From: Sphaerisporangium rufum
Lineage (GTDB): Bacteria; Actinomycetota; Actinomycetes; Streptosporangiales; Streptosporangiaceae
DNA: 64,000 nucleotides
Assembly: GCF_016863395.1 (NCBI RefSeq)
Contig: NZ_BOOU01000010.1
Span: 1-64,000 of the forward strand
Reading direction: 5' to 3'
A program made the translations under genes and the position numbers. The number at the start of each line of letters is the position of its first letter. The stretch's first letter is position 1. The notes below the pieces were generated by a model, which worked only from the letters and a program-made list of their open reading frames with translations, made no database searches and was not told where the DNA came from. Below are positions 6,106-25,668 of the stretch, in pieces.

Positions 6106-7128
6106 GTGCAGCCATTGGACCGGTCCGATCCGGTGGAGATCGGTCCCGTGACGTTACGCGGGCGGCTGGGCAGCGGCGGCATGGGCCGGGTCTACTACGG
6201 CGTGACCGAGGGATACGAGCCGGTCGCCGTCAAGGTCATCCGGGAGGAGCTGGCCGGCCGCGCCGAGGTGCGCGCCCGCTTCGCCCGGGAGACCGAGGCG
6301 CTGCGCACCGTCCGCAGCGCGCACCTGGCCGCGCTGGTCGACGCCTCCGGGCCGGACGAGGAGCCGCCGTGGGTGGCCATCGAGTACGTCCGCGGCGTCA
6401 GCCTCCGGGACCTGGTCGACGCCCGTGGCCCGCTGGACCCGGCGCACGCCGCCACGCTCGGCCTGCTGCTGGCGGACGCGCTGCGCGACGTCCACCGCGC
6501 CGGGCTGTTACACCGGGATCTCAAGCCCGGCAACGTCTTACTGGGCCGGGACGGACCCCGGCTGATCGACCTCGGGCTGGTGGCCTTCGCCGAAGGCCCC
6601 ACCGACCTCACCACCTCCGAGTCCACTCTCGGCACTCCCGCCTGCATGTCCCCCGAGCAGGTGAACACTCCCAAGCGGGTCACCGCCGCCACCGATGTGT
6701 ATTCCCTCGGCGCGACGCTGCTCTTCGCGCTCACCGAGCACTACCCCTACGACGCCGCCAACGTCGCTGCGCTGTTCATGAACATCGTGAACCCGGACGT
6801 CCCGCCGGATCTGACCGGCGTCCCCGCCGAGCTTGAGCCGCTGCTCGCCGCGATGCTCCGCCACGATCCCGCCGCCCGGCCCACCGTCCCCGAGGTGTAC
6901 GCGGCACTGAAGGAGCACGCGACCGCCGGCGGGGTCGCGTTGCCGGCCGCGGTGCGGCGCCTCGCGGTGGCCACCTATGTCGAGCGCGACACCGATCCGC
7001 CGGACACCGACCGGCCGCCGCCCCGCCCTCGCCCGCGCGACCTGTCGGAGGTCGTCGCCCCCGGCTCGGTGGTCGCCCGGCTGGCCGAGCGCCTCCGCGA
7101 CCAGTACGCCGCCGCCGCCCGCTTCTGA
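6106..7128 (+). CDS. Soluble Ser/Thr protein kinase, first gene of the defence operon
   Basis: The 340-aa Hanks-type kinase starts at GTG 6106, chosen because GGAG sits 5 nt upstream and the glycine loop follows soon after. Visible motifs are the loop GRLGSGGMGRVYYG, ATP-binding Lys43 (VAVKV), the HRDLKPGN catalytic loop (Asp138, Asn143), DLG in place of DFG (Asp155) and APE-like SPEQ. The tail after residue 275 is Pro/Arg-rich with no membrane segment, so it is cytoplasmic, unlike PknB-type receptors. Its stop codon lies within the Shine-Dalgarno of the SNF2 helicase, so the two are co-translated. Phosphorylation of defence partners, as in Pgl/BREX type 2 systems that contain a kinase, is inference. 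Confidence 0.93.
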   Translation: MQPLDRSDPVEIGPVTLRGRLGSGGMGRVYYGVTEGYEPVAVKVIREELAGRAEVRARFARETEALRTVRSAHLAALVDASGPDEEPPWVAIEYVRGVSLRDLVDARGPLDPAHAATLGLLLADALRDVHRAGLLHRDLKPGNVLLGRDGPRLIDLGLVAFAEGPTDLTTSESTLGTPACMSPEQVNTPKRVTAATDVYSLGATLLFALTEHYPYDAANVAALFMNIVNPDVPPDLTGVPAELEPLLAAMLRHDPAARPTVPEVYAALKEHATAGGVALPAAVRRLAVATYVERDTDPPDTDRPPPRPRPRDLSEVVAPGSVVARLAERLRDQYAAAARF

Positions 7129-7138
7129 GAGGACCACC

Positions 7139-9904
7139 GTGCAGGAGACCGCCTATCCCCCCGGGGCCCGGATCGAGGTGCGGGACGCGGAGTGGATCGT
7201 CCGGAACTGCGAGAAGGCCGGCCAGGACGGGTACAAGATCACCGCGATCGGCGCCTCGGAGTTCGTGCAGGACGAGGAGGCGGTGTTCTTCACCGCGCTG
7301 GACCGGGTCGGCCTGCTACGCCCGGAGGAGACGGTGCTGGAGCACGACGGCACCCGCCGGTTCGCGCAGAGCCGGCTCTTTCTGGAGGCCGTGCTGCGCC
7401 GCACCCCGCTGCCGCAGACCGAACGGGGCCTCGCGCTGGCCGACCGCTTCCTGCTCGACCCGTTGCTCTACCAGCAGCGCCCCGCCGAGCTGGCCCTCAA
7501 GGGCCTGCGCCCGCGGATCCTGATCGCCGACGTGGTCGGCCTGGGCAAGACCCTGGAGATCGGGCTGGTGCTGGCCGAGCTGATCCGGCGCGGCCGCGGC
7601 GAGCGCATCCTGGTGGTCACCCCGCAGCAGGTGCTGGAGCAGTTCCAGCACGAGTTATGGACCCGCTTCGCCATCCCGCTGATCCGGCTGGACTCGGTCG
7701 GCATCGAGCGTATCCAGCGGGACATCCCGGCGGGCCGCAACCCGTTCACCTACTACAAGCGGATCATCATCTCGGTCGACACCCTGAAGAACGAAGGCAA
7801 GTACGGCCGGCACCTGGAGAAGATGGACTGGGACGCGGTCGTCATCGACGAATCGCACAACCTGATCGGCGAGCGCAGCCTGCGCAACCGGCTGGCCCGG
7901 CTGCTGGCCCGGCGCACCGACGCGCTGCTGCTGGCCAGCGCCACCCCGCACAACGGCGAGAGCCGGTCGTTCGCCGAGCTGATCAGGATGCTGGACCCGG
8001 CCGCCATCGCCGACGACGAACACTACTCGGCCAAGGACATCGAGCACCTCTACATCCGGCGTACCAAGATCAGCCCGGAGGTGCGCGACCAGATGGGCGC
8101 CCGATGGCCGGACCGCGGCCCGTCGGTCCCGGTCCGCTGCGCGGCCACCCCCGCCGAGGAGAAGATCTTCGAAGAGCTCACCCAGGTGTGGCTGGCGGCC
8201 GGCCGCCCCGCCGCGGGCCCGGCCACCGACCGCAACCGGCTCTTCCCCTACGTGCTGCTCAAGGCGTTCCTCTCCTCGCACCACGCGCTCGCGAAGGCCG
8301 TCGCCAACCGGCTGCGCAACGCCACCGACCCCGCCGAGGTGGACGCGCTGAAGACGCTGGGCGGGCTGGCCACCCGGATGACCGACGACGATTCGGCCAA
8401 GCTGGCCGCCTTGGTGCGGGTACTGCGCGAGATCGGCGTCGGCCCGCGCAACGAGACCAGGGCCGTGGTGTTCTCTGAGAGCGTCGAGACCGTCCGCTGG
8501 CTGGCCCGGGTGCTGCCCGGCCGCCTCGGCCTCACCGCCAAGGGTGCCGTCGACATGATGCTGGGCAACGGCATGTCCGACCAGCAGCAACAGGAGGTCA
8601 TCGAACGCTTCGGGCTCGCCGACGGCCCGGTCCGGCTGCTCGTCACCACCGACGTGACCTCCGAGGGCGTCAACCTGCACCGCCAGTGCCACCACCTGGT
8701 CCACTACGACGTGCCGTGGAGCCTGATCCGGATCGAGCAGCGCAACGGCCGCGTCGACCGCTACGGCCAGACCCGGCAACCGCGGTTCACCGCGCTCATC
8801 CTCACCTCCGACGTCGAGGGCGCCAAGGACGACCGGACGGTGGCCGAGAAGCTGCTCGCCAAGGAGGAGACCGCGCACCGCAGCCTCGGCACCGCCGAGG
8901 CCGTCACCGGCGAGTACCGCGCCGAACGTGAGGAACGCCGGCTGGTCCAGGACCTGCTGGCCGGCAAGACCGTGGAGCAGTCCATCGAGGAACGCCCGGT
9001 GGACGACCTGCTCGCCGACCTGCTCGGCGCGGTCGGCGCCGGCCCGGCCGACCCCGACCCGCCCCGCGCCGAGGTGCCCCGGCTGTTCGACGGCTCCGAG
9101 GCGTTCGTCAAGGAGGCGGTGCACACCCTCGGCCTGCTCAAGGACCTGGACGACGACGGGCAGCTGCTCGCCTTCGAACCGCCGCCCGACCTCGCCCACC
9201 GGCTCTCGGTGCTGCCCGCCGACTACCTGCGCACCCACGACGTGCGGCGGCGGATGAAGGTCACCTTCGACCGCGGCCTGGCCCAGCGCAAGCTCGCCGA
9301 GGCCCGCACGACCAAGACCATGTGGCCGGAGATCGCCTACCTGTCCGACCTGCACCCGATGGTGGAGTGGGTGACCGACAAGGTGCTCGCCCGGCTCGGC
9401 CGGCTCAAGGCACCGGCCGTCACCGCCCGGGTCACCGAGCCCACCTTCCTGGTGCAGGGCATCTACTCCAACGCGCTCGGCCGGCCCACCGTGGTCGAGT
9501 GGATGGCGGTGACCGCCGGCGGCGTGCTCGCCGAACCGATGACCGAGGTGCTCGCCCGAGCCGGTGTCGGCCCGGCGATGGTCAACCAGGGCAAGGCGTT
9601 CGACCTGGCGCCCTACCAGGAGCAGGTGCCCGCCATGGTCGCCACCGCCCGCGCCCACCTGGAACGGCGCCGCGCCGCCTACGAGGCCGAGGTCGTGGCA
9701 CCGCTGGACACCTACCAGGACCGGCTGGCGCGCTGGCGGCAGCTCACCCTGGAGGGCACGCACGTCTCGCGGCGCGGCCGCGCCGCCGAGCACGTCGGCG
9801 AGACCGTCGAACGGCAGGAACACCTCCTCGGCCAACTCAAGATCACCGGGGAGCCGCTGCTGCGGGTCCTCGCCGTACTCGTGCCCCAGGACGGTCCCCG
9901 ATGA
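7139..9904 (+). CDS. SNF2-family (SF2) helicase, DrmD-like
   Basis: The 921-aa ATP-dependent DNA translocase starts at GTG 7139 with GAGAGGA 6 nt upstream, overlapping the kinase stop. Motifs are Walker A VVGLGKTLEIGL (about 132-143), motif II DESHN (about 237), motif III SATPHNG (about 267), motif V TSEGVNLHRQC and motif VI QRNGRVDRYGQ (about 533). The DESH box, short N-terminal part and long C-terminal extension match the SNF2 helicases of class 1 DISARM (DrmD) and related RapA/HepA-like proteins. Its end overlaps the methyltransferase by ATGA. It is probably part of a complex that scans or remodels incoming DNA. The DrmD label is by recall of architecture, not by search. Confidence 0.9.
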   Translation: MQETAYPPGARIEVRDAEWIVRNCEKAGQDGYKITAIGASEFVQDEEAVFFTALDRVGLLRPEETVLEHDGTRRFAQSRLFLEAVLRRTPLPQTERGLALADRFLLDPLLYQQRPAELALKGLRPRILIADVVGLGKTLEIGLVLAELIRRGRGERILVVTPQQVLEQFQHELWTRFAIPLIRLDSVGIERIQRDIPAGRNPFTYYKRIIISVDTLKNEGKYGRHLEKMDWDAVVIDESHNLIGERSLRNRLARLLARRTDALLLASATPHNGESRSFAELIRMLDPAAIADDEHYSAKDIEHLYIRRTKISPEVRDQMGARWPDRGPSVPVRCAATPAEEKIFEELTQVWLAAGRPAAGPATDRNRLFPYVLLKAFLSSHHALAKAVANRLRNATDPAEVDALKTLGGLATRMTDDDSAKLAALVRVLREIGVGPRNETRAVVFSESVETVRWLARVLPGRLGLTAKGAVDMMLGNGMSDQQQQEVIERFGLADGPVRLLVTTDVTSEGVNLHRQCHHLVHYDVPWSLIRIEQRNGRVDRYGQTRQPRFTALILTSDVEGAKDDRTVAEKLLAKEETAHRSLGTAEAVTGEYRAEREERRLVQDLLAGKTVEQSIEERPVDDLLADLLGAVGAGPADPDPPRAEVPRLFDGSEAFVKEAVHTLGLLKDLDDDGQLLAFEPPPDLAHRLSVLPADYLRTHDVRRRMKVTFDRGLAQRKLAEARTTKTMWPEIAYLSDLHPMVEWVTDKVLARLGRLKAPAVTARVTEPTFLVQGIYSNALGRPTVVEWMAVTAGGVLAEPMTEVLARAGVGPAMVNQGKAFDLAPYQEQVPAMVATARAHLERRRAAYEAEVVAPLDTYQDRLARWRQLTLEGTHVSRRGRAAEHVGETVERQEHLLGQLKITGEPLLRVLAVLVPQDGPR

Positions 9905-12900
9905 GCTACGACTCGCTGGTCAACCGCGGCGACTACTTCTCGGCGCACTACCTGGCCGAGGTGCTGCCCAAGGACCTGAAGAAGAAGGACGGCCTGCTCG
10001 CCCGCTGGACCGAGCAGGAGAAGGCCGGCCGCACCACCCCGCGCCGCGGGCTGCGCGCGCTGGGCAGGCCCTACTTCGCCGGCCGCCCGTTCTTCGCCGG
10101 GCTGGACGAGCGGCTGCGCGCCGGCGACCCGATCACCGCCGACGAGCGGGACGAGCTGCACAAGGAGCTGGCCGAGCTGCACGGCGAGGTCCTGCGCGCC
10201 CTCGGCTACCGGCCCGAACCGCGCGCGCTGGCGGTGCGGCGCGCGGGGCGCGAGTACGCCGTCCAGGTCGCGCACGCCGACCGGCACCTGGTCGCGCTGG
10301 ACTGCGGCTGGGCCGCCGACGTGGACGCCGCGCTGGACGACGCCCTGGCCGGCCGGCTGCTGGTCCCGGCCCAGGTGGAGGACCGGGCGGAGATCACCTC
10401 CGGGGTCCGGCTCGCCTCCTGGCTGATGGCCGCGGACGAGCCGCCGCGCTACGTGCTGCTGCTGGCCGGCGGCGTCGTCGTGCTGGCCGACCGGGCCACC
10501 TGGGGCGAGGGCCGCTACCTGGCGGTCAGCCTGGACGTCGCGCTCGGCCGCAACGACCCGGCCGAGCTGGAGACCGTCGCCGCGCTGTTCGGCGCCGACT
10601 CGTTGCTCCCGCCGGAGGAGGGCGGCACCGAGGTGCTGGCCGGCCTGCTCGCCGGCTCCCGCAACCACGCGGTGGGCGTCTCCAAGGAGCTGCGCGACGG
10701 GCTCAAGGAGTCGGTCGAGCTGATCGCCAACGAGGTGCTCGACCGCATCCGCGCGCACGGCGCGCGCCCCGAGGACGTCATGGAGCTCGGCGCGCTGGCC
10801 AAAGAGCTGGGCCGCGAGGCGCTGCGCTACCTGTACCGCATCCTGTTCCTGCTGTACGCCGAGGCCCGCCCGGAGCTCGGCATCCTGCCCACCGACGACC
10901 AGGACTACGTCAAGGGCTACAGCCTGGCCCGGCTCGGCGACCTGGTCGTCCGCGACCTGTCCGGCGAGGAGGCCCGCAACTCCTTCCACCTGTACGAATC
11001 GCTGGACCTGCTGTTCCGCATGGTCAACCAGGGCCACCCGCGCCGCACCGGACCGGACGCCGCGGCGGACCCGCCGGGGGAGGGGCTGCGGTTCGAGCCG
11101 CTGCGCTCGGACCTGTTCGAGCCGTCGGCCATCCGGCTCATCGGCCGGGACGCCGTCTCGCTGGACGACGACGATCCGGACGCGCCGCGCATCGACACCC
11201 GGCTGCGAAACCAGACGCTCTACAAGGTGCTGCGCAAGCTGATGCTCACCAAGGGCCGGCGCAAGCAGCGCGGCGGCTTCATCTCCTACGCCCAGCTCGG
11301 CATCAACCAGCTCGGCGCGGTGTACGAGGGCCTGATGTCCTACACCGGGTTCATCGCCACCGAGGAGCTGTACGAGGTCGCCAAGGGCGGCGACCCCAAG
11401 GACGGCTCGTGGATGATCCCGGCGTCCAAGGCGGCCGACTACCCCGAGGAGGTGTTCGTCCCGGCGGTGGACGAGGACGGCGTGCGCACCGGCGAGCACG
11501 TCCGCTACCGCGCGGGCGCCTTCGTCTACCGGCTGGCCGGCCGGGACCGGGAGACCAGCGCCTCCTACTACACCCCCGAGTCGCTCACCCAGGTCACCGT
11601 ACAGCTCGCCCTGCGGCACCGGCTGGACCAGGACGGCACGGTCACCGGGGCCCGGGAGATCCTCGGCTGGAAGATCTGCGAACCGGCGCTCGGCTCCGGC
11701 GCGTTCCTCAACGAGGCGATCAACCAGGTCGCCGCCGAATACCTGCGGCGCCGCCAGCAGGAGCTGGGCGTCTCCATCGACCCGGTGCGGTACGAGGAGG
11801 AACTACAGAAGGCCAAGGCGTACATCGCGCTGCACAACTCCTACGGCGTCGACCTGAACGAGACCGCCGTCGAGCTGGCCGAGGTGTCCATCTGGCTGAA
11901 CGTCATGCACCCGGGTTTGCAGGCCCCGTGGTTCGGCCTGCACCTGCGGCGCGGCAACTCGCTCATCGGCGCCGGCCGCCGGGTGTACGACCCGGACCGG
12001 CTCACCAAGGGCGGCTGGCTGAAGGAGGCCCCGCACGACCTGCCGTTCTCGGCGGGCGACCTGCCGGCCGGCCAGGTGCACCACTTCCTGCTGCCCGCCG
12101 AGGGCTGGGGCGCGGTCGCGGGCGCCAAGGAGGCCAAGGAGCTGGCGCCGGAGCAGGCCAAGCAGCTCGCCGCCTGGCGGCGGCAGCTGCACAAGAGCGT
12201 GTCCGCCAAGAAGCGCCAGGGCCACAAGCTGAGCCAGCTGCAGCGGCTGCAGGCGCTGGCCGGCCGGGCCGAATACCTGTGGGACCTGGTGAAACAGCGG
12301 CTCACCATCTCCGAGCGCGAGATCAGCCGGCGGATCGACGTCTGGGGCGCCGACTGGCTGGACCACCCGGAGAACGCGGTCCCCAAGGAGAAGGTGTACG
12401 CCGACCTCACCGCCCCGGGCACCCCGTACTGGCGGCTGAAGAAGGTCATGGACGCCTGGTGCGCCCTCTGGTTCTGGCCCCTGGACCAGACCGCCCTCCT
12501 CGACGGCACCGCGGACATCTACCAGACACCCGCGCCCGCGTCGCCCGCTCCCCAAGCGCCGGCCGCTGCCGCCGTCCCGGCCGCCGAACCCGCCCGGACC
12601 GCACGGCTCTACGTCACCGACGCCCTCTTCCCCGTGGGCGACGAGCAGACCGCCCTGGACGCCGACCTCGGGGCACCCCTGGAATCCTCCACCCAAGAGC
12701 CCTTGGACGTCTCCGCCCAGGAACCCTCCGCCACCACACCCACCACCTCTGCAAGGCCCAGTACCTCCGCAGAGCCCACCACCTCCGCAGGGTCTACCGG
12801 CTCTGCCCGGCCGATCGGCTCCGCAGGGCCTACCGGGTTCACCCGGCCCACCGGCTCTGTCCGGCCGGCCGGCCGCAGGACTCGGCCGGCGTTCGAACCG

Positions 12901-15093
12901 CTCCGGGAGACCATCCCGCTGGCCACCCTGGACGACTGGCTCGACTTCGCCGAAGCCACCCTCGGCCGCGCCGACATCCCGCCGGACTCCCTGGTCGCCG
13001 ACTTCGCCTCGCTGGCCGCCCTGGAGGAGTACGAGGACGAACTCCAGTCCTGGATGGGCATGGACTCCGGCTTCCGCCTCACCACCCGCTTCCCCTGGCT
13101 CCAGGTGGTCGAGACCATCGCCGACCGCCAGGCCTTCTTCCACTGGGAACTCCAGTTCGCCCAAATCTTCACCCAAGGCGGCTTCGACCTCCAGGTTGGC
13201 AACCCTCCGTGGTACCGGCCACGCTGGGAAGAGGGACCGATCCTTGCTGAGTTCGAGCCGTGGTTCGAGCTGTCCGACAAGCCACCGGTGGCCGAGTGGA
13301 ATCGCCGCAAGCAAGCGGAGTTGGAGCGCAATCAGCGCAACAGGCATTACGTCCAGGTCGAGTTGGCGGCCAACACAGGCGCAGTTGCCGTGCTGGGCTC
13401 TCCGGCGATGTACGACCTGCTGGTCGGTACACAGCCCAACCTCTACCGCGCCTTCATGATCCGAACCTGGCGCAACCTCGGCACGGTGGGCATATCCGCC
13501 CTTATCCATCCGGACAGCCACTTCACCGGAGCCCAGGAGGGTAACCTGCGCGCCGCAACCTACCGTCACCTGCGCCTGCACGCTCACTTTCAGAATCAGC
13601 GATTGCTCTTCGCGGACATTGACTGGAGCAGACAGTACGGCGTGCAGGTGTACGGTCGCCCTCAGCGAATCGAGTTCACTCATGTCAGCTGGCTTTTCGA
13701 TCCAAGCGTATTGATGGAGTCGTTTGATCACGATGGGACTGGTGAGCGACCAGGAATCAAGTACAATGGATACTGGGACCTGCGTCCGCATCGGGAGCGG
13801 CTTGTCACGGTGAATGAAGGCGTGCTGGCTGACTGGCGAATGCTGACCGGTGAGCTAGACAGGCCGATCGACCAGACCAAGCTCCTCTACCCGGTGACCA
13901 CGGCGGAGCAAGGAGCAATCGCCGCCCTCTCCCGAGTGGAGCGACGTTTAGGGGACTGGGATCCACGGATCAGTCGCGGGTATGACGAGGCAAATGCCAA
14001 GAAGGACGGTATCATTACTTGGGATACCGGTCGCCCTAACGATTGGTCAGAAGTGATCCTTCGGGGGCCGCAATTTACCGCTGCGACTCCCTTTGCCAAG
14101 CAGCCGCCCAACACCGGTCGCAATGACCAGGCCATTGATCTGACAACCCTAGGTGATGAAGCCATACCTTCGACCGACTATCGTCGCTCGATAGATATTA
14201 AGTCATATCTATCGACGCAGGATTCGTGGTTATGGGACGTTCGCGAGGCGCCGAGGCGATATACTGAATTCTATCGGCTATTCTGGCGGGAGATGATACC
14301 CAACAACACGACTCAAAGTCTTTTTGCTGCGATTATGCCACCCGGGCCTGCTCATATTCATGGCGTTAGGAGCATGGCTCTGCGCAGCGGTAGAGAAATT
14401 GCGCTTGTCGCAGGTTACTGGGCATCATTACCGATAGACTATTTGCTCAGACTTACTGGCCGAGCTCACCTGGATGTGGCTGAAGCGAAAATTTTACCTG
14501 TGCCAGATCCGGATCACTCGTTATCGGAAGCGCTTCTCCTCCGAGCGATGCGATTGAACTGCCTCACTAGGGCTTACGCGAATCTCTGGCGTGAGCTCTA
14601 CAAGAGCAGCTGGGCTAGTGACGTTTGGGCAGCGGAATGGCCGGGACTTCCGCCGCTTGGCGAGACCGGTCCTTCGTGGGAGCGGGGCACGCCGCTGCGT
14701 ACAGAGCGGGCGCGTCGGGCGGCGCTGGTGGAGTTGGATGCGCTAGTCGCGTTGATGCTCGACATCGACGCCGAAGAGTTGATCGCTCTTTACCGCTCGC
14801 GCTTCCCGCAACTCCTCACCTACGAGAGTGCCATGTGGTTCGACGCGAACGGCCGGAAGATCGCGGAGAACTTCAATGCCTACGGTCACGGGCAGACCAA
14901 GCAGCACTTCGAGCAGTTGATGGCGCATCTCGATCCGGAGGTCAATGGGCCGGTGCCCGATGGGTACACGGCGCCGTTCTACAAGGCGGACCGGGAGGCC
15001 GAGTATCGGCAGGCGCACGCGGTCTTCGCCGAACGCCTGCGCCGATCCGGCTACCAGGCGCCGGGTGGGGCCGGCGGGGAGGATGGCCGGTGA
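9901..15093 (+). CDS. Giant N6-adenine DNA methyltransferase, DrmMI/PglX-like
   Basis: The 1730-aa protein starts at ATG 9901 in an ATGA overlap with the helicase. The SAM-binding motif EPALGSGAFLNEA is near residues 598-610, followed by the acidic DLNETAVELAEVSIWLN segment. Catalytic NPPW (GNPPWYRP) is near residue 1099, about 500 residues later. A Lys-rich helical segment and a Thr/Ser/Pro/Gly-rich linker (about 935-1000) lie between them. The roughly 600-residue N-terminal region is conserved in large Eco57I/PglX-like enzymes. From about 13200 to 14640, covering NPPW and the presumed target-recognition domain, base composition drops clearly, then recovers. It probably marks host DNA for the adjacent helicases. 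Modification-only versus cutting activity cannot be told from sequence. Confidence 0.9.
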   Translation: MSYDSLVNRGDYFSAHYLAEVLPKDLKKKDGLLARWTEQEKAGRTTPRRGLRALGRPYFAGRPFFAGLDERLRAGDPITADERDELHKELAELHGEVLRALGYRPEPRALAVRRAGREYAVQVAHADRHLVALDCGWAADVDAALDDALAGRLLVPAQVEDRAEITSGVRLASWLMAADEPPRYVLLLAGGVVVLADRATWGEGRYLAVSLDVALGRNDPAELETVAALFGADSLLPPEEGGTEVLAGLLAGSRNHAVGVSKELRDGLKESVELIANEVLDRIRAHGARPEDVMELGALAKELGREALRYLYRILFLLYAEARPELGILPTDDQDYVKGYSLARLGDLVVRDLSGEEARNSFHLYESLDLLFRMVNQGHPRRTGPDAAADPPGEGLRFEPLRSDLFEPSAIRLIGRDAVSLDDDDPDAPRIDTRLRNQTLYKVLRKLMLTKGRRKQRGGFISYAQLGINQLGAVYEGLMSYTGFIATEELYEVAKGGDPKDGSWMIPASKAADYPEEVFVPAVDEDGVRTGEHVRYRAGAFVYRLAGRDRETSASYYTPESLTQVTVQLALRHRLDQDGTVTGAREILGWKICEPALGSGAFLNEAINQVAAEYLRRRQQELGVSIDPVRYEEELQKAKAYIALHNSYGVDLNETAVELAEVSIWLNVMHPGLQAPWFGLHLRRGNSLIGAGRRVYDPDRLTKGGWLKEAPHDLPFSAGDLPAGQVHHFLLPAEGWGAVAGAKEAKELAPEQAKQLAAWRRQLHKSVSAKKRQGHKLSQLQRLQALAGRAEYLWDLVKQRLTISEREISRRIDVWGADWLDHPENAVPKEKVYADLTAPGTPYWRLKKVMDAWCALWFWPLDQTALLDGTADIYQTPAPASPAPQAPAAAAVPAAEPARTARLYVTDALFPVGDEQTALDADLGAPLESSTQEPLDVSAQEPSATTPTTSARPSTSAEPTTSAGSTGSARPIGSAGPTGFTRPTGSVRPAGRRTRPAFEPLRETIPLATLDDWLDFAEATLGRADIPPDSLVADFASLAALEEYEDELQSWMGMDSGFRLTTRFPWLQVVETIADRQAFFHWELQFAQIFTQGGFDLQVGNPPWYRPRWEEGPILAEFEPWFELSDKPPVAEWNRRKQAELERNQRNRHYVQVELAANTGAVAVLGSPAMYDLLVGTQPNLYRAFMIRTWRNLGTVGISALIHPDSHFTGAQEGNLRAATYRHLRLHAHFQNQRLLFADIDWSRQYGVQVYGRPQRIEFTHVSWLFDPSVLMESFDHDGTGERPGIKYNGYWDLRPHRERLVTVNEGVLADWRMLTGELDRPIDQTKLLYPVTTAEQGAIAALSRVERRLGDWDPRISRGYDEANAKKDGIITWDTGRPNDWSEVILRGPQFTAATPFAKQPPNTGRNDQAIDLTTLGDEAIPSTDYRRSIDIKSYLSTQDSWLWDVREAPRRYTEFYRLFWREMIPNNTTQSLFAAIMPPGPAHIHGVRSMALRSGREIALVAGYWASLPIDYLLRLTGRAHLDVAEAKILPVPDPDHSLSEALLLRAMRLNCLTRAYANLWRELYKSSWASDVWAAEWPGLPPLGETGPSWERGTPLRTERARRAALVELDALVALMLDIDAEELIALYRSRFPQLLTYESAMWFDANGRKIAENFNAYGHGQTKQHFEQLMAHLDPEVNGPVPDGYTAPFYKADREAEYRQAHAVFAERLRRSGYQAPGGAGGEDGR
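12730..12875 (+). repeat. Degenerate short repeats coding a Thr/Ser/Ala/Gly/Pro linker
   Basis: Within the methyltransferase, imperfect units of about 18 bp encode repeating TSA-RP, TSA-EP, GSA-RP, GSA-GP and TG-RP blocks. The stretch is low complexity and probably a flexible hinge between the SAM-binding half and the NPPW/target-recognition half. Confidence 0.7.
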
Positions 15094-15588
15094 CCATCAC
15101 CATGCACCTGCCGGCGGCCCGAGGCGTGACCGGTGGGAGGGCCCCCGGCCGGCAGATTCGGCTGGTGGTGGCTGTCCGGGGAAGCCGCTTCGGCGTCGCG
15201 GTCGAGTTCGCGAACGGGTTGACAGCAGATGTCGCCCGGCTACTATGGGTGGTGCGTGGCTCGCTCGGAGTCATGAAGTGGAGCCGGGTTAACCTCCGCA
15301 GGTGGTGGCCCGGCTTTCGCGTGTCACCGGGTCACCGCGGTTCGCAGCCCACGCTCAACACTCCCGCCAGCCCGCCCGCCATCGGGTCCTCGTCACGGGC
15401 AAGTGCCTTGGCGGTGCTGCTGACGATCACGTTGGCCGATGCCCGCGGCGGATCGGGGGGTCTCCGGTCCGGCGGGTCGATTCGGATGGCCGGCCGAGGC
15501 TCGCTCGTTGCGCAGAGTGAGTTGACAGCCACGGAGGCGAGCGGGTTAACTGTTCTCAACTGCACCACCCATCTCGGTGGGTGGCCCG
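15094..15588. other. Intergenic stretch after the methyltransferase gene
   Basis: About 495 bp without a supportable gene. A GTG at 15090 overlaps the methyltransferase stop (GTGA) and opens a frame, but its translation is low-complexity, has no family likeness and runs across the terminator, so I do not call it. The composition suggests decayed sequence. Confidence 0.4.
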
Positions 15589-15625
15589 GAGCCCCGTCCA
15601 GTGGACGGGGCTCTATGTCTTTTTC
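15589..15625 (+). terminator. Rho-independent terminator, operon end
   Basis: GAGCCCCGTCC (15589-15599), loop AGT, GGACGGGGCTC (15603-15613), then TATGTCTTTTTC. The perfect 11-bp stem plus T run is a classical terminator for the rightward kinase-helicase-methyltransferase operon. The convergent NYN gene ends inside the T run, so the hairpin may also serve that gene. Confidence 0.88.
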
Positions 15626-16256
15626 ACCATCGCTGCGGCCGTCTGATCTTGCCGTCCACCCCTTGGAGTTGGTCGGGCAACTGGCAGGCCCGCAACATGC
15701 CGGTGTTGATCTGTCGGAAGAACGTCGGCCGCGCTGCGATGAGGTCGACCGCCCGCCGCTCGTAGGGGTAGGGATTGGCCACCCCGATCGAGAGGCCGAG
15801 GGCGTGACGGACGGCCCGAATCGGCTCCGCAAGGTCGGCGTCGTTGCTGACGACCAGGGCACAATCGCCGTCCCGCCGGAAGGCATCGAGGAGCAACGCC
15901 GTCGCGAGGTTGACGTCCGAGCCCTTCTCTTCGGTCTTGTAGACCTCAACGGTTCGAGGGCCACCGGGTGGTGGGAAGGCCAGCGGCATCCGGGTGACCC
16001 GCGTCTGGAACCGGCCGAAGTGGACACTCAGGTGCGGGATGGTCAACAGCGCCCGCAAGTAGATGTCCTGGCGGCTGGGTGCATCTGGGTCGTCAGGTCG
16101 CGCCGTGACCCTCGCGGTGAAGTAGCGAATCCGGTTGACGTCGCCCACCCGGATCAGTCGCCTGGCGAGAGCGTCGAGATCAAGCCACTTGTACGGCGTT
16201 CCGCGCAGGCAGCCGTAGTAGAGGTTGAACCCGTCCACGTAGACGTTGGTAAGCAC
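15624..16256 (-). CDS. NYN-domain (PIN-like, LabA/VapC7-type) nuclease
   Basis: A 210-aa protein from GTG 16256. The NYN fold is shown by N-terminal NVYVDGFNLYYG (first acidic residue Asp8), the central KGSDVNLATALLLDAF helix and CALVVSNDADLAEPIRAVR, which carry the conserved acidic residues of metal-dependent ribonucleases. The C-terminus is basic (KIRRPQRW). NYN proteins usually cleave RNA. The gene lies antisense between the two halves of the helicase/methyltransferase locus, converging on the methyltransferase terminator, and shares its upstream DNA with the giant helicase. Participation in the locus is plausible but only positional. Confidence 0.9.
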   Translation of the reverse strand: MLTNVYVDGFNLYYGCLRGTPYKWLDLDALARRLIRVGDVNRIRYFTARVTARPDDPDAPSRQDIYLRALLTIPHLSVHFGRFQTRVTRMPLAFPPPGGPRTVEVYKTEEKGSDVNLATALLLDAFRRDGDCALVVSNDADLAEPIRAVRHALGLSIGVANPYPYERRAVDLIAARPTFFRQINTGMLRACQLPDQLQGVDGKIRRPQRW

Positions 16257-16284: not shown

Positions 16285-16369
16285 TAGCCACCACGATCGG
16301 TCGAATCCGGGTTCGGCACCTGGCCCCCGTCAGGACATGCCGGCCGCCGTTGCCCTACCGGGAGGCCGC

Positions 16370-19300: not shown

Positions 19301-22300
19301 CTCTACCTGGGCGAGGGGGTGTTCCGGGTGGTCACCGCCGAACACACCGGCGCGCTGAGCCGCCGCCAGCGCGAGCTGGTCGAGCAGCGCTTCCGGGCCG
19401 GCGACCGGTACACCGACCCGAACGTGCTGTCCTGCACGCCGACGCTGGAGCTGGGCATCGACATCGGCGACCTGTCGGCGGTCATCCTGGCCTCGCTGCC
19501 GCCGGGCCCGGCGAACTACGTGCAGCGGGCCGGCCGGGCCGGCCGCCGCACCGGCAACGCACTGCTGGTCACCATGGTGGGCGGCTCGCCGCGCGACCGG
19601 TACTTCCTGGACGAGCCCCGGGACATGATCGCCGGAGACATCGTGCCGCCGGGCGGCTATCTGTCGGCGGTGGAGATCCTGCGCCGCCAGTACGTCGCGC
19701 ACCTGGTCGACCTGTGCACCCGCGGCCGGTTCCCCGCCGTGCTGCCGCTGCCGCGCCGGGCGTCGGCGCTGTTCGGCGAGGCCGGCTGGCTGGCCGGCTT
19801 CGTGCCCGCCGCGCTGGCCGACGGCGCCGCGCTCGCCACCGGGTTCCTCGCCCTGTTCGGCGCCTCGGTGAGCCCGGAGGCCGCCGCCGACCTGCGCGCG
19901 TTCGCCACCGCCGGCCTGGCCGGCGCCGCCCGCCGCGCCGAGCAGGTGTGGGAGCGGCGGCTGGCCGACCTGCGGGACCGGCTGGCGGTGATCGACACCG
20001 CGGTCGAGGCGCTGGTGGAGGCCGACCCCGAGCAGGAGCGGATCAAGCGGTCGCTGGTCGCCGAGCGGCGGGCGGTGGCCCGATTACTCGGCGAGACCGG
20101 CCGGGGCAGCGCGCAGGCCGCCCTGGTCGAGCTGGGCCTGCTGCCCAACTACTCGCTGCTGGACTCGGCGACCTCCCTGGAGGCGACCATCACCTGGGAG
20201 GAGGAGGTCCCCGGCGGCAAGCGCTACCACAGCGAGGTCCGCGAATACCAGCGGCCGGCCCGGCTGGCCCTCACCGAGCTGGCGCCCGGCAACTCCTTCT
20301 ACGTCCGCGGCTACCGCCACGAGGTGACCGGGCTGGACGCCGGCACCCCGTCCCGGCCGGCCTTCGAGGACTGGCGGGTCTGCCCGGACTGCGGGCACGT
20401 GCGCACCTTCCACGCCAAGGACGACACCGCGCCGTGCCCGCGCTGCGGCGGCACCGACATCGGCGAGGTGAGCTCGCTGCACCAGGTGCTGCGCCCGGTC
20501 CGGGTCACCGCGCACGACCGCCGCGACGACGCGCAGATCCGCGACGACAACGACGACCGGCTCCGGCGCTACTACGAGACCGCGGTCGCGGTGGACGTCG
20601 ACCCGGCCGGCATCGCCGCCGGCTCCTGGCGGCACGCCACCGAGGTGTTCGGGGTGGACTTCACCCGGGACGCCGCCGTCCGCCGGTTCAACCTGGGCGC
20701 CGCCCGCCAGGACCGGCCGGCCGAGACGCGGTTCGCCGGGCTGGAGGTCCGGCCCAACCCGTTCCACACCTGCCCGTCCTGCGGCGGCACCACCGTGGAC
20801 GGCCCGCCGTCGGCCGGCGAAGGCGACGGCCTGGTCGCCACCTCCTCCTACGACCAGTCGCGCCGCCACCACCGGCCCTGGTGCCCGTTCCGGCGGGCGG
20901 CCCGCGACACCGAGCACGTCAAGCTCATCCTGGCGCACGAGCTGCGCACCGAGGCGCTGCGCATCCTGCTGCCGGTGGCGACGCTGCTGGCCGAGGAACG
21001 CACCGCGTCCTTCCAGGCCGCGCTGATGGCCGGCATCGCCGCCCGGTACGGCGGCGACCCCGACCACCTGGCCATCGTCACCGCCACCATGCCCGACCAG
21101 GAGACCCGGCGCCGCCGCCGCTTCCTGGTGCTGCACGACACGCTGCCCGGCGGCACCGGCTACCTGCACCGGCTCGCCTCCCCGGAGGGGTTCCACGAGG
21201 TGCTGGCCGAGGCGTTCCGGATCGTCGCCGGCTGCCGCTGCAAGGAGGAACGCGGCCGGCGCGCCTGCCACCGCTGCCTGCTCGCGCACGTCCCGGGGAG
21301 CATGTACGACCGGGTTAGCCGGGCCGACGCGCTGGAGATGCTCGGCGACCTGCTGGCCGACTGGCGGATCACCCCGGTGCGGACCACCGGCGACATCTCG
21401 CTATGGGACCAGATCGAGAGCGAGCTGGAGGCCCGCTTTCTCAGCGGCCTGGAGGCGTGGGCGCGCCGCCCCGACACCCCCGGCACGCTGGCCCGCGGCG
21501 AGGTCGTGAACGGCCGGCGGACCGCCGACCTACGCGTCGAGGGCCCGGACGGCCTGGTCCGGCACTGGCGGCTGACCCTGCAGAACACCATCCGCGGCAC
21601 CCGGCCGGACCTGCTGTTCGACCTGGTCGACCCCGAGCCGCAGCAGGTCGCCGTCTACCTGGACGGCTACGCCTACCACGCCTCACCGCAGGTCAACCGG
21701 CTGGCCGGTGACGCCGGCAAGCGGGCCCGGCTGCGCGCGCACCGCGGCCTGGTCTTCCAGCTCACCTGGGACGACCTGGACGAGTGGGAGGCGCGGGACT
21801 TCGCCCCCGGCGACGCCAAGGCGCCGTCCCGGGCGCCCTATCTGAACAACGCGCAGATGGTCGCCCGGGATTACTACAGCCGGACCACCGGCCGTGACCC
21901 CGGCGAGCTGAACCTCACCATGTGGGGCAACCCGGTGGAGACCCTGCTCGCCTACCTCGCCGAGCCCGATCCGCTGGTCTGGCTGCGCCGCACCGAGGCG
22001 GTGTGCGCGGGCGTCCTGCCGGTCGCCACCGCCGGCAGCCGGTGCGAGCCGGCCGGCGTCCCCGAGCGGGTCACCGCGGCGCTGCGCGGCGACCGGCTGC
22101 CGCCCGGCCCGGCCGGCTCGGTGATGGTGTGCACCGCCGCCGACCTGGCCGGGTGCCCGCTCACCCTGGTCGTCGCCGGGCGGGCGTGGAGCGCGTTCAC
22201 CGTGGTCGACGACCGGGACGAGACGATCCGCGCCGGCGAGACGGCGCACCGGCGGCGCTGGGCGGGCTGGCTGTACTGGGGCAACCTGCTGCAGCTCCTG

Positions 22301-22880: not shown

Positions 22881-25067
22881 ATGAGCCAGGCGACGTTGCG
22901 GCTGCTGGACAAGGCCGACAAGGAGATACTCAAGCTGCCGCGCGCGGTGAAGGGCGCGATCTACGACTTCCAGCACCGCTTCCGCCAGGACCCGGAGAAC
23001 CCGGGGCTGCGGTTCAAGCAGCTCAAGGGCCACCCCCGGCTGTACTCGGCCCGGGTGAACCTCGACTATCGGGCGCTGCTGCTGCACGCGGGCGGCAACG
23101 ATTACATCCTGGTCGCGGTCCGGCCGCGCCAGGAGGTGTACGACAACCTGGACAAGTTCGCCTACCAGATCAACCCGGTGACCGGCGGCATCGAGTTCCT
23201 CGACCTGCTGACCATCGAGAAGGTCGTGCCGCCGGACCCCGGGCCGGACCCGGACCCCCGGCCCGGCCCGGCCCCCCGGCCGGAGCCCGCGCCGCTGTTC
23301 GCCGGGTACGCCGCCGGGACGCTGCTGGAACTCGGCGTCGCCGAACCGCTCCTCGGCCTGATCATGAAGATCACCACCGAGGACGAGCTGCTCGGCCTGG
23401 CCGCCTACGCGCCCCAGCTCACCGGTGAGGTGCTGCTCGCGCTGCACGACGGCAAGACCGTCGAGGAGGTGCTGGACCAGGTCACCACCCCGGTCAAGGC
23501 CGAGGACGAGATCGACGCCGACGACTACCAGAGCGCGCTCAGCCGGCCGGCCACCGCGGTGACCACCAAGGACGCCGCGCTGCAGGAGATCCTGGAGGAC
23601 GACTTCGGCCGCTGGCGGGTCTTCCTGCACCCCACCCAGCGGAAGATCGTCGAACGGTCCTACCGCGGCCCGGCTCGGGTCAGCGGCGGGCCGGGCACCG
23701 GCAAGACCATCGTCGCGCTGCACCGGGTGCGCCACCTGGTGGAGCGGCTCGGCCCCGGCGAGCGCACCGACGTGCTGCTCACCACGTTCAACAAGAACCT
23801 GGCCGCCGACCTGCGGCACCGGCTGCTCGCGCTGGCCGGGCCGGACATCCTGCGGCGGGTCGACATCGTCAACATCGACCGGCTGGCCAGCGACATCGTG
23901 ACCCCCACCGAGGCCGGCGCCGGCCGGCGGTGGATCGACGACACCAAGGCCGTCGTCCAGTGGCAGGAACTCCTCGACGAGCTCGGCCAGCGCCGCTGGG
24001 ACGCCGAGTTCCTGCACGACGAGTGGTCCCAGGTCATCCTCGGCCAGGGCGTCACCACCCGGGCCGGCTACTTCCGCGCCCGCCGGGCCGGCCGCGGCCG
24101 GCCGATCACCCGGGAGGACCGGGCGGCGATCTGGCAGCTCGCCGAGCGGTACGTCATGCGGCTGGACGACAAGGGTCTGTGGACGATCCGCCAGGTCGCC
24201 GAGCGGGCGGCCCGCATCGAGGCCGAGCGGGCCCGCGACACCGCCGCCTACCTCGCCGACCAGGTCAGCTCGGCCAAGGTGCAGCGCGAATCCGGCATCT
24301 GGCACCGCCCCCGCTACCGGCACATCGTGGTCGACGAGGCCCAGGACCTCAGCGCGGCGCACTGGCGGCTGCTGCGCGCCATGGTGCCCGAAGGCCCCGA
24401 CGACCTGTTCATCGCCGGCGACACCCACCAGCGGATCTACTCCCACCAGGTCTCGCTGGGCAGCCTCGGCATCAACATCCGCGGCCGGTCGTCCCGGTTG
24501 ACCCTGAGCTACCGCACCACCCACGAGATCCTCCGCGCCGCCGCCGGCCTGCTCGGCACCGAGGAGTGGGATGACCTGGACGACGGCCGCGACGACCTGA
24601 CCGGCTACCGCTCGGTGCTGCACGGGCCTGAGCCCGTCTACACCGGCTACCCGACCTGGGCCGCCGAGCTGGACGGCATCGCGGCCCAGGTCCGGGCCTG
24701 GGGCGGCGGCTCGATCGCGGTCTGCGTGCCGGCCCGGCGGATGGTCGGCGAGGTGGAGCGGTGGCTCGGCCAGGCCGGCATCGAGTCCTGCGCCATCGAT
24801 GGCGACGGGCCGAAGAAGCCCGACTCCCCGGTGCACGTGGGCACGATGCACCGGTTCAAAGGGCTGGAGTACCAGCGCATGATCATCGCCGGGGTCGCGG
24901 ACGGGCTGCTGCCCGCCGGCCGGGTGCTCGACCACGCCGCCGAGGACCCGCTGCGGTACCGGCGGGAGCTGCGCCAGGCCCGCTCGCTGCTGTTCGTCGC
25001 CGCCACCCGGGCCCGGGACAGCGTCGCGATCAGCTGGCACGGCCGCAAGAGCCGGTTCCTGCCGTGA
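22881..25067 (+). CDS. RelE/ParE-like domain fused to UvrD/PcrA-type helicase
   Basis: The 728-aa protein starts at ATG 22881 behind GGGGAGAG. Residues 1-110 resemble a RelE/ParE toxin fold (LRFKQLKGHPRLYSARVNLDYRALL, then VRPRQEVYD). A Pro-rich linker follows (about 122-140). The SF1A helicase has Walker A SGGPGTGKT (about 268-276), motif II VVDEAQD (about 485), IAGDTHQRIY, LSYRTTHEI, HRFKGLEYQ and motif VI VAATRARD (about 709). It lies 52 bp after the giant helicase and is probably in the same operon. The fusion recurs in actinobacteria. Whether the RelE part is an active RNase, a ribosome-binding module or only structural is unknown. Confidence 0.92.
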   Translation: MSQATLRLLDKADKEILKLPRAVKGAIYDFQHRFRQDPENPGLRFKQLKGHPRLYSARVNLDYRALLLHAGGNDYILVAVRPRQEVYDNLDKFAYQINPVTGGIEFLDLLTIEKVVPPDPGPDPDPRPGPAPRPEPAPLFAGYAAGTLLELGVAEPLLGLIMKITTEDELLGLAAYAPQLTGEVLLALHDGKTVEEVLDQVTTPVKAEDEIDADDYQSALSRPATAVTTKDAALQEILEDDFGRWRVFLHPTQRKIVERSYRGPARVSGGPGTGKTIVALHRVRHLVERLGPGERTDVLLTTFNKNLAADLRHRLLALAGPDILRRVDIVNIDRLASDIVTPTEAGAGRRWIDDTKAVVQWQELLDELGQRRWDAEFLHDEWSQVILGQGVTTRAGYFRARRAGRGRPITREDRAAIWQLAERYVMRLDDKGLWTIRQVAERAARIEAERARDTAAYLADQVSSAKVQRESGIWHRPRYRHIVVDEAQDLSAAHWRLLRAMVPEGPDDLFIAGDTHQRIYSHQVSLGSLGINIRGRSSRLTLSYRTTHEILRAAAGLLGTEEWDDLDDGRDDLTGYRSVLHGPEPVYTGYPTWAAELDGIAAQVRAWGGGSIAVCVPARRMVGEVERWLGQAGIESCAIDGDGPKKPDSPVHVGTMHRFKGLEYQRMIIAGVADGLLPAGRVLDHAAEDPLRYRRELRQARSLLFVAATRARDSVAISWHGRKSRFLP

Positions 25068-25209
25068 GGATCGCCCCGGCAGCGCCCTGGCCGCCTACCA
25101 GGAGCTGCGCACCTGGGGACGCGATCTACCGCCGCTCCCCGGCCGGGTGGACCCCGAGCGGGCCACCGCCCCCGTCCACCTCTACTCCACCCTCCTCGCC
25201 CACCTTCCT
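25066..25209 (+). pseudogene. Orphan coding fragment after the UvrD helicase
   Basis: Directly behind the helicase stop, frame +1 reads SALAAYQELRTWGRDLPPLP followed by a 24-residue tail ending at TGA 25207-25209. Composition is protein-like (GC3-rich, amphipathic helix, charged residues), but no start codon or ribosome-binding site is present. It may be the 3' end of a lost gene, or the helicase once read through into it. The parent family is not recognised. Confidence 0.35.
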
Positions 25210-25263
25210 TGACCTCAGCCACCGCCGCCAAGGCGGCCCACACCACTTCCGGGAGACGACACG

Positions 25264-25668
25264 ATGACCAAGTACGGCCGGGACGACCTGACCTGGGACC
25301 AGCTGACCGAGGCCGGCCTGGAAGTGCTGCTCGAATGCGCGCGGCGTGGCGACCTGATCGCCTACGGCGACCTGAACAGCGAGCTGGAGCGGCGGACCGG
25401 CATTCCCGGCTTCGACTTCAACCGGCCGGACGAACGCGCCGCGCTGGGCCACCTGCTGTGGCTGATCGTGGAACGGAACCGCCCGGAGACCGGCATGATG
25501 ATCTCCGCGCTCGTCATCTACAAGGGAGCGTCCGACCCGGGCCCCGGCTTCTTCGGCCTCGCCGCCGACCTCGGCCTGCTGCCGCGCCGCCCATCAGCCG
25601 ACGAGAAGGACGAGTTCTGGACCAAGCAGGTGACCGGCCTGCACGCCCACTACGCGAACGGCGGCTGA
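25264..25668 (+). CDS. Hypothetical protein, possible last gene of the defence operon
   Basis: A 134-aa acidic, soluble protein starting at ATG 25264, with GGGAGA 6-7 nt upstream. It is rich in Leu/Glu/Asp helices in the first half (WDQLTEAGLEVLLECARRGD) and Gly/Pro loops in the middle (GASDPGPGFFGLAADLG). No catalytic motif or family is recognised. It follows the UvrD gene by about 200 bp in the same direction. Codon use matches the island genes. A regulatory or adaptor role is possible but unsupported. Confidence 0.7.
   Translation: MTKYGRDDLTWDQLTEAGLEVLLECARRGDLIAYGDLNSELERRTGIPGFDFNRPDERAALGHLLWLIVERNRPETGMMISALVIYKGASDPGPGFFGLAADLGLLPRRPSADEKDEFWTKQVTGLHAHYANGG

What the first reader, a model, noticed from the sequence alone, without database searches (positions are those of the whole stretch)
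6106..25668. Composite DISARM-related defence locus with unusual gene content
Seen: coupled genes for a soluble kinase, a DESH-box SNF2 helicase and an NPPW methyltransferase, then an antisense NYN nuclease, a 2152-aa DUF1998 helicase and a RelE-UvrD fusion. Known: class 1 DISARM has DrmD (SNF2), DrmMI (methylase), DrmA (helicase), DrmB (DUF1998) and DrmC (PLD). Here DrmA/DrmB look fused, no PLD protein is present, and kinase, NYN and RelE-UvrD are added. Inference: a distinct multi-helicase anti-phage system, combining DISARM-like and BREX/Pgl-like ideas.
Basis: partly seen in the sequence, partly recalled or inferred. Interest (0 to 1): 0.85.

Follow-up and report, generated by a model that had tools for sequence, protein, structure and literature searches.

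The report
Kinase-bearing ARMADA anti-phage operon
This is a bacterial anti-phage operon of the recently described ARMADA type II family, in a large actinobacterial branch where every testable copy we looked at also has a protein kinase in front, which the published text does not mention and which may act as its switch.

Summary
The genes are real. The core is not a new composite but ARMADA type II (Bell et al. 2025 preprint, PMC12458937): ArmA (SNF2), ArmB (NPPW methylase), ArmC (single-chain YprA/DUF1998 helicase), ArmD (RelE-UvrD), in the published order. All eight residues mutated in the E. coli system are conserved. New relative to the preprint text: (1) the Ser/Thr kinase is a constant fifth gene of one actinobacterial clade: directly upstream of ArmA in 74 of 74 testable clade loci, in none of 23 testable loci outside, and in 27 further named loci. 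Its catalytic residues are kept, it co-diverges with the core genes, and ArmB gained a long disordered linker in the same clade. (2) The NYN gene is not a component but cargo (3 of 34 gap stretches) in the ArmB-ArmC junction, which opens repeatedly (1.0-19.7 kb), while the kinase-ArmA junction never exceeds 416 nt (72 measured). Most likely the kinase gates ARMADA, as PglW is proposed to gate PglX: inferred, not shown.

The parts
6106..7128 (+). Hanks-type Ser/Thr kinase, 340 aa, proposed fifth component of this ARMADA clade
   Evidence: Pkinase 1.8e-35; upstream of ArmA in 74 of 101 loci, a single clade; catalytic residues conserved
7069..7116 (+). kinase C-terminal helix (residues 322-337) after a disordered proline-rich stretch; conserved motif around Y334, candidate docking element
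   Evidence: Y334 in 73 of 74 rows, the other being truncated; A327, L330, R331, Y334 invariant in the 36 rows of A5, but R331 is Ala in at least eight other rows; helix in the model, block pLDDT 78 and 67
7139..9904 (+). ArmA: SNF2/RapA-like (BrxHII/DrmD-like) helicase, GTG start
   Evidence: K137 and D237 correspond to E. coli K136 and D236
9901..15093 (+). ArmB: PglX/DrmMI-like adenine methylase, 1730 aa, NPPW at residues 1101-1104
   Evidence: N1101 and G598 correspond to E. coli N971 and G605
12481..12936 (+). ArmB clade-specific low-complexity linker (residues 861-1012) with LLDG[ST]...Y (residues 866-874, nt 12496-12522); candidate kinase target
   Evidence: 43-152 aa in 63 of 64 clade rows against 12-24 aa in 20 of 20 others; S/T870 in 58 of 64, Y874 in 63 of 64
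15588..15614 (+). terminator-like hairpin after ArmB, suggests ArmC-ArmD may be transcribed separately here
   Evidence: 12-pair stem followed by a T run (0.6 such sites expected in shuffles, so weak evidence)
15624..16256 (-). NYN nuclease (PADLOC HEC-09-like): cargo in the ArmB-ArmC junction, not a core part
   Evidence: Pfam NYN 6e-10, HEC-09 4e-39; in 3 of 34 gap stretches examined: window, L014, L147
16370..22828 (+). ArmC: YprA-family helicase with DUF1998/MZB and C-terminal PD-(D/E)xK (Vsr-like) nuclease region (GTG start; an in-frame ATG lies at 16337)
   Evidence: DEAD 90-282, Helicase_C 998-1071, MZB 1559-1648; K118 and D235 correspond to E. coli K110 and D234
21428..21736 (+). ArmC candidate nuclease motif region (E...RPD...LDG...H...D...R)
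   Evidence: E55, D115, G134, H138, D149, R153 invariant in the 21 rows of A4; the single-sequence fold failed
22881..25067 (+). ArmD: N-terminal RelE-like domain fused to a GajB/UvrD-like helicase
   Evidence: UvrD 4.9e-23, GajB 4.9e-28, RelE/YoeB profile hits; K275 and D485 correspond to E. coli K266 and D454

Best explanation
The locus is an ARMADA type II anti-phage operon (ArmA-ArmB-ArmC-ArmD) of an actinobacterial clade that recruited a soluble Ser/Thr kinase once and kept it as a fifth component; the NYN gene between ArmB and ArmC is an inserted passenger. Shown here: gene identity, order, conserved active sites, one-clade kinase association, co-divergence, clade-specific ArmB linker, conserved kinase tail. 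Inferred working: ArmA and ArmB survey and methylate DNA; ArmC loads on infection-associated DNA (as DruE does on 3' ssDNA), unwinds it and cuts with its C-terminal nuclease; ArmD adds a second motor and a RelE-type RNase domain. The kinase keeps the machine off or switches it on by phosphorylating itself and a partner, most likely ArmB, through a tethered C-terminal helix: the role proposed for PglW over PglX in Pgl. The confidence below is for the first sentence; kinase gating I put at about 0.6.
For: Identity: and PMC12458937. Kinase: in 55 of 55 loci of the first survey; in 74 of 101 in the enlarged set, where 23 testable loci outside the clade have none on the same strand within 2.2 kb. 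The kinase loci fall on one side of a branch in trees of ArmA (99; with the untestable L076), ArmB N-terminal part (99) and ArmD (95). A further scan of named genomes: 36 of 38 have it, the other 2 are truncated there; 9 of the 36 repeat earlier loci. Catalytic K43, E62, HRD.K..N, D155, G157, E184, D197, R258 stand in 73-74 of 74 rows; the gaps checked are truncated rows. 42 ARMADA kinases form one group against 28 other kinases of the window's genome (84/87, in 88% of bootstrap trees). Distance correlation of the kinase with ArmA/B/C/D is 0.88/0.85/0.94/0.91, against 0.93-0.98 among core genes. Kinase-ArmA spacing is at most 416 nt in 72 measured, while ArmB-ArmC opened in 18 of 47 (minus the broken L022). 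ArmB linker. Precedent: PglW kinase activity is essential for Pgl (PMC4365076, abstract and passages).
Against: I found no experiment on a kinase-bearing ARMADA. E. coli ARMADA works without a kinase, so the kinase is not needed for the chemistry. Kinases are common in these genomes (40 matches in the window's own), and one kinase-less locus (L100) has a weak kinase-like match about 1.9 kb upstream on the other strand. Kinase gain and ArmB linker growth each happened about once, so their co-occurrence is one phylogenetic event; the earliest-branching kinase locus L062 has a 14-aa linker. T also stands at the column of S/T870 in 7 of 20 rows outside, where the alignment is gappy. The tail motif is not invariant clade-wide. 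Co-divergence is also expected from mere co-inheritance. The trees carry long-branch warnings and the kinase tree support is moderate. The Vsr nuclease was judged from motifs only.
Confidence: 0.83

Rival explanations
1. The kinase is a separate small regulator or defence gene (for instance PD-T4-6-like or AfsK-like) that travels with ARMADA without working with it.
For: The best PADLOC profiles are PD-T4-6 kinases (7.3e-56) and NCBIfam's best is AfsK, far below cut-off (221 against 1300 bits). The core functions without a kinase in E. coli. No interaction was shown.
Against: Never separated from ArmA by more than 416 nt in 72 measured loci while another junction of the same operon opened repeatedly. 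Retained across three family codes and on a Streptomyces plasmid. Conserved tail and clade-specific ArmB linker.
Confidence: 0.25
2. The kinase is itself an effector: on infection it phosphorylates host or phage proteins to stop growth, a back-up like the one suggested for the PglW kinase modules.
For: Defence kinases with host targets exist (recalled). A 2026 BREX survey proposes suicidal roles for PglW kinase modules (PMC12839542 passages).
Against: E. coli ARMADA acts without killing the cell (PMC12458937). The conserved tail and tight operon position suggest an internal partner.
Confidence: 0.15
3. A divergent class 1 DISARM with fused DrmA/DrmB and lost DrmC.
For: ArmA hits DrmD (4.5e-81) and ArmB hits DrmMI (9.5e-55).
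Against: ArmC's best PADLOC models are DruE (1.8e-87), DrmA only 1.2e-15, and no DrmB model is among the 25 of 30 shown. No PLD domain in Pfam. RelE-UvrD is the ARMADA II signature.
Confidence: 0.03
4. The NYN nuclease is a working component of the system.
For: It is seen next to ArmC, antisense, also in L014 (84%) and L147 (63%).
Against: In only 3 of 34 gap stretches examined, the others holding different genes or none recognised; antisense to the operon, behind a terminator-like hairpin. Six loci whose ArmC lies on another contig could not be examined.
Confidence: 0.05

Closest known systems
ARMADA type II (E. coli NCTC 12900/ATCC 8739; PMC12458937)
   Same: Same four genes, order and strand; all eight residues mutated in the study are conserved; 34-38% identity over aligned residues to a plasmid-borne E. 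coli copy whose residue numbers match the study.
   Different: Kinase in front, long ArmB linker, cargo between ArmB and ArmC. None of these was seen in the preprint text: 'kinase', 'NYN', 'accessory' and 'hotspot' have 0 hits. Its figures and supplements were not seen.
DISARM class 1
   Same: SNF2 helicase (DrmD-like) and adenine methylase (DrmMI-like).
   Different: No separate DrmA and DrmB, no PLD DrmC; ArmC is nearer DruE.
Pgl / BREX type 2
   Same: A Ser/Thr kinase next to a PglX-like methylase in actinobacteria; PglW kinase activity is required for Pgl (PMC4365076).
   Different: PglW is a 1400-1600-residue multidomain protein (PMC12839542 passage); this is a 340-aa kinase. No PglZ or PglY match was listed for the ten proteins scanned.
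Druantia type III (DruE-DruH)
   Same: ArmC resembles DruE; the solved chain 9tu7_Y, which I take to be DruE (the PDB name says only DEAD/DEAH box helicase), is the best PDB match (5.4e-44).
   Different: No DruH match listed; ArmA, ArmB and ArmD have no counterpart in the two-gene Druantia III; ArmC has a Vsr-like rather than a PLD nuclease end (motif only).

Membership tests
ARMADA type II | Order BrxHII-like helicase, PglX-like methylase, YprA helicase, RelE-GajB/UvrD | tested here: met
ARMADA type II | Catalytic residues mutated in E. coli (ArmA K136, D236; ArmB N971, G605; ArmC K110, D234; ArmD K266, D454) | tested here: met
   8 of 8 conserved
ARMADA type II | Single-chain YprA helicase with OB-CON-DUF1998 and C-terminal Vsr-type nuclease | tested here: inconclusive
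   Single chain and MZB met. Conserved PD-(D/E)xK-like motif, but the fold prediction failed (pLDDT 36) and the profile found no Vsr in the PDB
ARMADA type II | ArmD N-terminal RelE-like domain | tested here: met
   33-row profile hits a toxin-like protein, RelE3 and YoeB, E 5.6e-5 to 2.8e-4; Pfam alone did not show it
ARMADA type II | Position in the ARMADA II clade of a YprA-family tree | not tested
   No family-wide YprA tree was built; ArmA, ArmB and ArmD trees hold the E. coli plasmid copy L067 as a kinase-less relative
ARMADA type II | Blocks phages | not testable with these tools
   needs an experiment
DISARM class 1 | Separate DrmA and DrmB plus PLD nuclease DrmC | tested here: not met
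   One 2152-aa chain, best profile DruE; no PLD domain in Pfam in the ten proteins scanned
DISARM class 1 | DrmD-like SNF2 helicase and DrmMI-like methylase | tested here: met
   DrmD 4.5e-81; DrmMI 9.5e-55, although the methylase's best model is a type IIG enzyme, 1.5e-290
Pgl / BREX type 2 | PglZ and a multidomain PglW | tested here: not met
   No PglZ match listed for the ten proteins (PADLOC lists capped at 25 families a protein); BREX_PglW model 34 bits against a cut-off of 990 for the kinase
Druantia type III | DruE with DruH | tested here: not met
   DruE-like protein present, no DruH match listed for the ten proteins scanned (lists capped at 25)

The most novel reading that the evidence does not exclude
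A phospho-switched ARMADA: a kinase acquired once in actinobacteria docks by its C-terminal helix and phosphorylates a clade-specific Ser/Thr-containing linker element in the methylase ArmB (LLDG[ST]...Y), turning the four-protein DNA- and RNA-attacking machine on or off. It evolved independently of Pgl but converged on kinase control of a PglX-type methylase. The same operon's ArmB-ArmC junction serves as a bay for other defence genes.
Probability: 0.33. Interest if true: 0.7.

Novelty: new variant of a known kind. Interest (0 to 1): 0.5.

Why it matters
The preprint leaves ARMADA's trigger open. A kinase that one large branch was never seen to lose offers a direct handle: a single kinase-dead mutant would show whether the system is held off or switched on by phosphorylation. 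If confirmed, it would be a second, separate case of kinase control over a PglX-type methylase, and would suggest that defence against DNA invaders in actinobacteria repeatedly recruits from the large Ser/Thr kinase stock of these bacteria. The ArmB-ArmC junction also marks a place to look for new defence genes.

Tried and rejected
Rejected: DISARM membership (no DrmA/DrmB pair, no PLD); NYN as component (3 of 34 gap stretches); the 134-aa ORF as component (no family match; no hit above 60 bits in 55 loci, though most fetched stretches end before its place); a different conserved upstream gene replacing the kinase in kinase-less loci (in 21 such loci examined, 5 share a DrmB-like protein and otherwise only pairs were alike).

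Led nowhere: single-sequence fold of the ArmC C-terminus (pLDDT 36); PDB search for an ArmB structure (none at E 0.001 for the window protein or the E. coli plasmid relative); ARMADA in phage records by ArmD (no match at 1e-20); direct repeats at the NYN insertion (only two pairs of 20-23 nt, 78-80% alike); no tRNA in the window; Foldseek with the kinase model gave only protein kinases among the 50 listed. Searches for a printed kinase-ARMADA link: and in-paper finds 10, 75, 100, 117 and 124 (the last, a review, holds both words in unrelated passages); none seen. One search used whole-word matching on a word stem, so it was too strict. Supplements and figures were not available, and most subscription papers and bioRxiv itself are outside the library.

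Rows dropped or limits: ArmA matches weaker than E=1e-80 were not listed, so distant ARMADA loci are thinly sampled. Seven of 49 plasmid records with ArmD were fetched. L070 (Thermus, BREX-like hybrid) and L071 (divergent) were left out of kinase-absence counts, as were L076 and L105, whose contigs hold only 391 and 26 nt upstream of ArmA. Among the 23 counted, L095 shows no ArmB or ArmC in its stretch and L090 and L094 end before ArmC. L022 was taken out of the opened-junction count because its ArmB frame is broken. Rows with ArmB under 1,500 aa were left out of the linker count (84 kept), and the 64 clade rows include L076. 28 of 39 kinase paralogs of the own genome and 42 of 72 long ARMADA kinases went into the kinase tree. 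L189, with a short kinase frame, was left out of A5. Of 194 cargo ORFs of at least 120 aa, 99 were scanned together (tables capped at 25 families) and 10 singly, 4 of them in both; the ORFs come from my own length-and-GC3 picker, not a gene caller, and no background set was scanned, so enrichment in defence genes is not shown.

Full report
What is there. Ten window proteins were translated and scanned. From left to right: a Hanks-type Ser/Thr kinase (6106-7128), an SNF2/RapA-like helicase starting 10 nt later (7139-9904), a methylase that overlaps it by 4 nt (9901-15093, GNPPW), an antisense NYN protein (15624-16256), a 2152-2163-aa DEAD/Helicase_C/MZB(DUF1998) protein and a 728-aa UvrD protein. 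A profile of 33 N-termini of the last family matches RelE and YoeB toxins in the PDB (5.6e-5 to 2.8e-4).

What it is. A 2025 preprint (PMC12458937; abstract, sections 4 and 12 and passages read) describes ARMADA. [quoted passage not shown] In E. coli it protected against 13 of 80 phages, needed all four genes, and acted without killing the cell, though lysis was still seen at the highest phage doses. An E. coli plasmid copy (L067) has the residue numbers used in that paper, and all eight mutated residues are conserved in the window proteins. Membership rests on gene set, order and active sites. The C-terminal Vsr-type nuclease is supported only by a conserved E...D...DG...H...D...R pattern, because the fold attempt failed and no Vsr was found in the PDB by profile. 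No family-wide YprA tree was built.

DrmA and DrmB are not fused here: per the preprint a single chain is usual in the YprA family and DISARM is the branch where it is consistently split. ArmC's best PADLOC models are DruE (1.8e-87), not DrmA (1.2e-15). The RelE-UvrD protein is a standard ArmD. The kinase and the NYN gene are the two real departures from the published layout, and they behave very differently.

The kinase. ArmA was sought in 345 genomes of the order (53 with a match at E 1e-80, the window's own included), 394 of the class (42) and 396 of the phylum (8); these sets overlap. The 55 and 38 loci fetched from them, seven plasmid loci and the window make 101. A kinase lies directly upstream of ArmA on the same strand in 74 of 101. 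Of the other 27, two have under 400 nt of upstream contig (L076, L105) and two are not canonical ARMADA (L070, L071), leaving 23 testable loci without it; one of these (L100) has a weak kinase-like match about 1.9 kb upstream on the other strand. On the ArmA tree the 74 form one supported clade (99) together only with the untestable L076. ArmB (99) and ArmD (95) trees give the same split; all three trees carry long-branch warnings. A scan of named genomes added 38 loci, from Sphaerisporangium, Microbispora, Planotetraspora, Nonomuraea, Streptosporangium and others, most of them Streptomyces: 36 have the kinase, two are truncated at that side, and nine of the 36 repeat earlier loci. The window's genus code is shared with G219, whose locus is identical to the Sphaerisporangium perillae one, so the organism is probably a Sphaerisporangium. 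The clade mixes three family codes and includes a Streptomyces plasmid, so the association is not simply one chromosome position inherited by descent.

The kinase looks active and specialised. K43, E62, HRD.K..N, D155, G157, E184, D197 and R258 stand in 73-74 of 74 rows, the gaps checked being the truncated L055 and L061. After the kinase domain comes a proline-rich stretch of variable length and then a short conserved tail. Its Y334 is kept in 73 of 74 rows (the other is truncated); A327, L330, R331 and Y334 are invariant in the 36 rows of A5, but in the 74-row set L330 differs in three untruncated rows and R331 is Ala in at least eight. The model shows the tail as a helix at 322-337 (mean pLDDT 75.5). 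42 ARMADA kinases group apart from 28 other kinases of the window's genome (84/87). Pairwise distances of the kinase correlate with those of ArmA, ArmB, ArmC and ArmD at 0.88, 0.85, 0.94 and 0.91, against 0.93-0.98 among the core genes. Co-inheritance would also give this, so it shows shared history, not function.

A matching change in ArmB. Between the conserved WFWP and the segment before NPPW, ArmB has 12-24 residues in 20 of 20 rows outside the clade but 43-152 in 63 of 64 inside it. The inserted stretch is low in complexity but begins with an element LLDG[ST]...Y: S or T at position 870 in 58 of 64, Y874 in 63 of 64 against 1 of 20 outside. T also stands at column 870 in 7 of 20 outside rows, where the alignment is gappy; the full pattern from WFWP to LLDG[ST] is met in 50 of 64 inside and 0 of 20 outside. 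The exception in length, L062, is the earliest-branching kinase locus (14 residues). Since gain of the kinase and growth of the linker each happened about once, this is a suggestive coincidence, not a statistical association.

The NYN gene and the open junction. Outside the clade ArmB and ArmC overlap or nearly so (17 of 19 measured within 300 nt; L066 394 nt, L069 844 nt with one gene between). Inside it, 18 of 47 junctions measured in the fetched stretches hold 1.0-7.3 kb (L022 removed as a broken ArmB). In 19 genomes re-searched, ArmC was found in all. In six it lies on another contig; ten loci on one contig have 9.3-19.7 kb between ArmB and ArmC, all same strand and downstream (my arithmetic). 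In two sister genomes (G278, G227) the opening is between ArmA and ArmB instead. By contrast, the kinase-ArmA spacing is at most 416 nt in 72 of 72, and ArmC-ArmD at most 120 nt in 37 of 37. The contents vary: PIN, NYN, Schlafen-AlbA, ParA-like and DprA-like proteins, with 3 of 10 unrecognised, and in 99 pooled proteins XRE/DUF5753 regulators (13), AAA ATPases matching AbiEii/AriA/Old/PtuA/HEC-01A models that overlap each other (about 7), GmrSD (5), NsnA/NsnB (4 and 6; Menshen by recall) and type ISP enzymes (2), from tables capped at 25 families. No background was scanned. NYN occurs in 3 of 34 gap stretches: the window, L014 (84%) and L147 (63%). It is cargo. A terminator-like hairpin after ArmB hints that ArmC-ArmD may have their own promoter here.

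How it most likely works. The core should act as in E. coli: ArmA and ArmB examine and methylate DNA, ArmC engages and cuts infection-associated DNA, and ArmD adds a motor and an RNase-like domain (inferred from the families). DruE, a studied relative of ArmC, loads on 3' single-stranded DNA and is proposed to cut after assembling (PMC13192584, abstract and passages). For the kinase, the nearest precedent is PglW, whose kinase activity is needed for Pgl resistance and is proposed to activate PglX by phosphorylation (PMC4365076, abstract and passages). I think the kinase gates this ARMADA (about 0.6), with ArmB as the likeliest target (about 0.33). A stand-alone passenger or a separate effector remain possible.

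Novelty. The core is known. A kinase-bearing clade, its ArmB linker and the ArmB-ArmC cargo site were not seen in the preprint text, and the searches listed under Tried and rejected found no mention elsewhere; supplements and figures were out of reach. I rate it a new variant of a known kind.

Noticed in passing
L066:1224-22100, and upstream of ArmA in L091, L092, L093, L097: In five kinase-less actinobacterial loci a DrmB-like protein precedes ArmA; in Tsukamurella (L066) DrmA and DrmB run straight into ArmA-ArmD, a DISARM-ARMADA tandem that may share one SNF2-methylase pair.
   Followed up: partly
L070:3978-21995: Thermus plasmid with BrxL, a BrxHII-like helicase, an NYN gene, a methylase, a DEAD helicase and an ArmD-like UvrD protein nearly in a row: a BREX-ARMADA-like hybrid, again with an NYN gene.
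   Followed up: no
window 25830-26759 and 26752-27516 (+): HipA-like protein (PADLOC PDC-M03A, 1.4e-105) overlapping a HIRAN-domain protein (PDC-M03B, 1e-77; start read from the translation): a candidate two-gene defence system just downstream.
   Followed up: no
window 3905-5611 (-): 568-aa protein matching PADLOC HEC-07 (8.8e-23) and, at its C-terminus, NsnC (4.6e-14); no Pfam match. Upstream of the kinase on the other strand.
   Followed up: no
L025:11370-11564 (+ in its ArmA orientation): A 33-aa copy of the ArmC N-terminus (73% to the window) sits in the ArmB-ArmC gap upstream of the intact ArmC, perhaps a scar of cargo insertion at the ArmC start.
   Followed up: partly
L142-L146 (G278, G227): In two sister genomes cargo of roughly 37 and 21 kb lies between ArmA and ArmB, including kinase-like genes on the opposite strand; ArmB-ArmC is tight in G227 and, by distance, in G278.
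   Followed up: partly
window 53609-58039 (-): 1476-aa trypsin-like/nSTAND1/WD40 protein, a conflict-type NTPase architecture.
   Followed up: no
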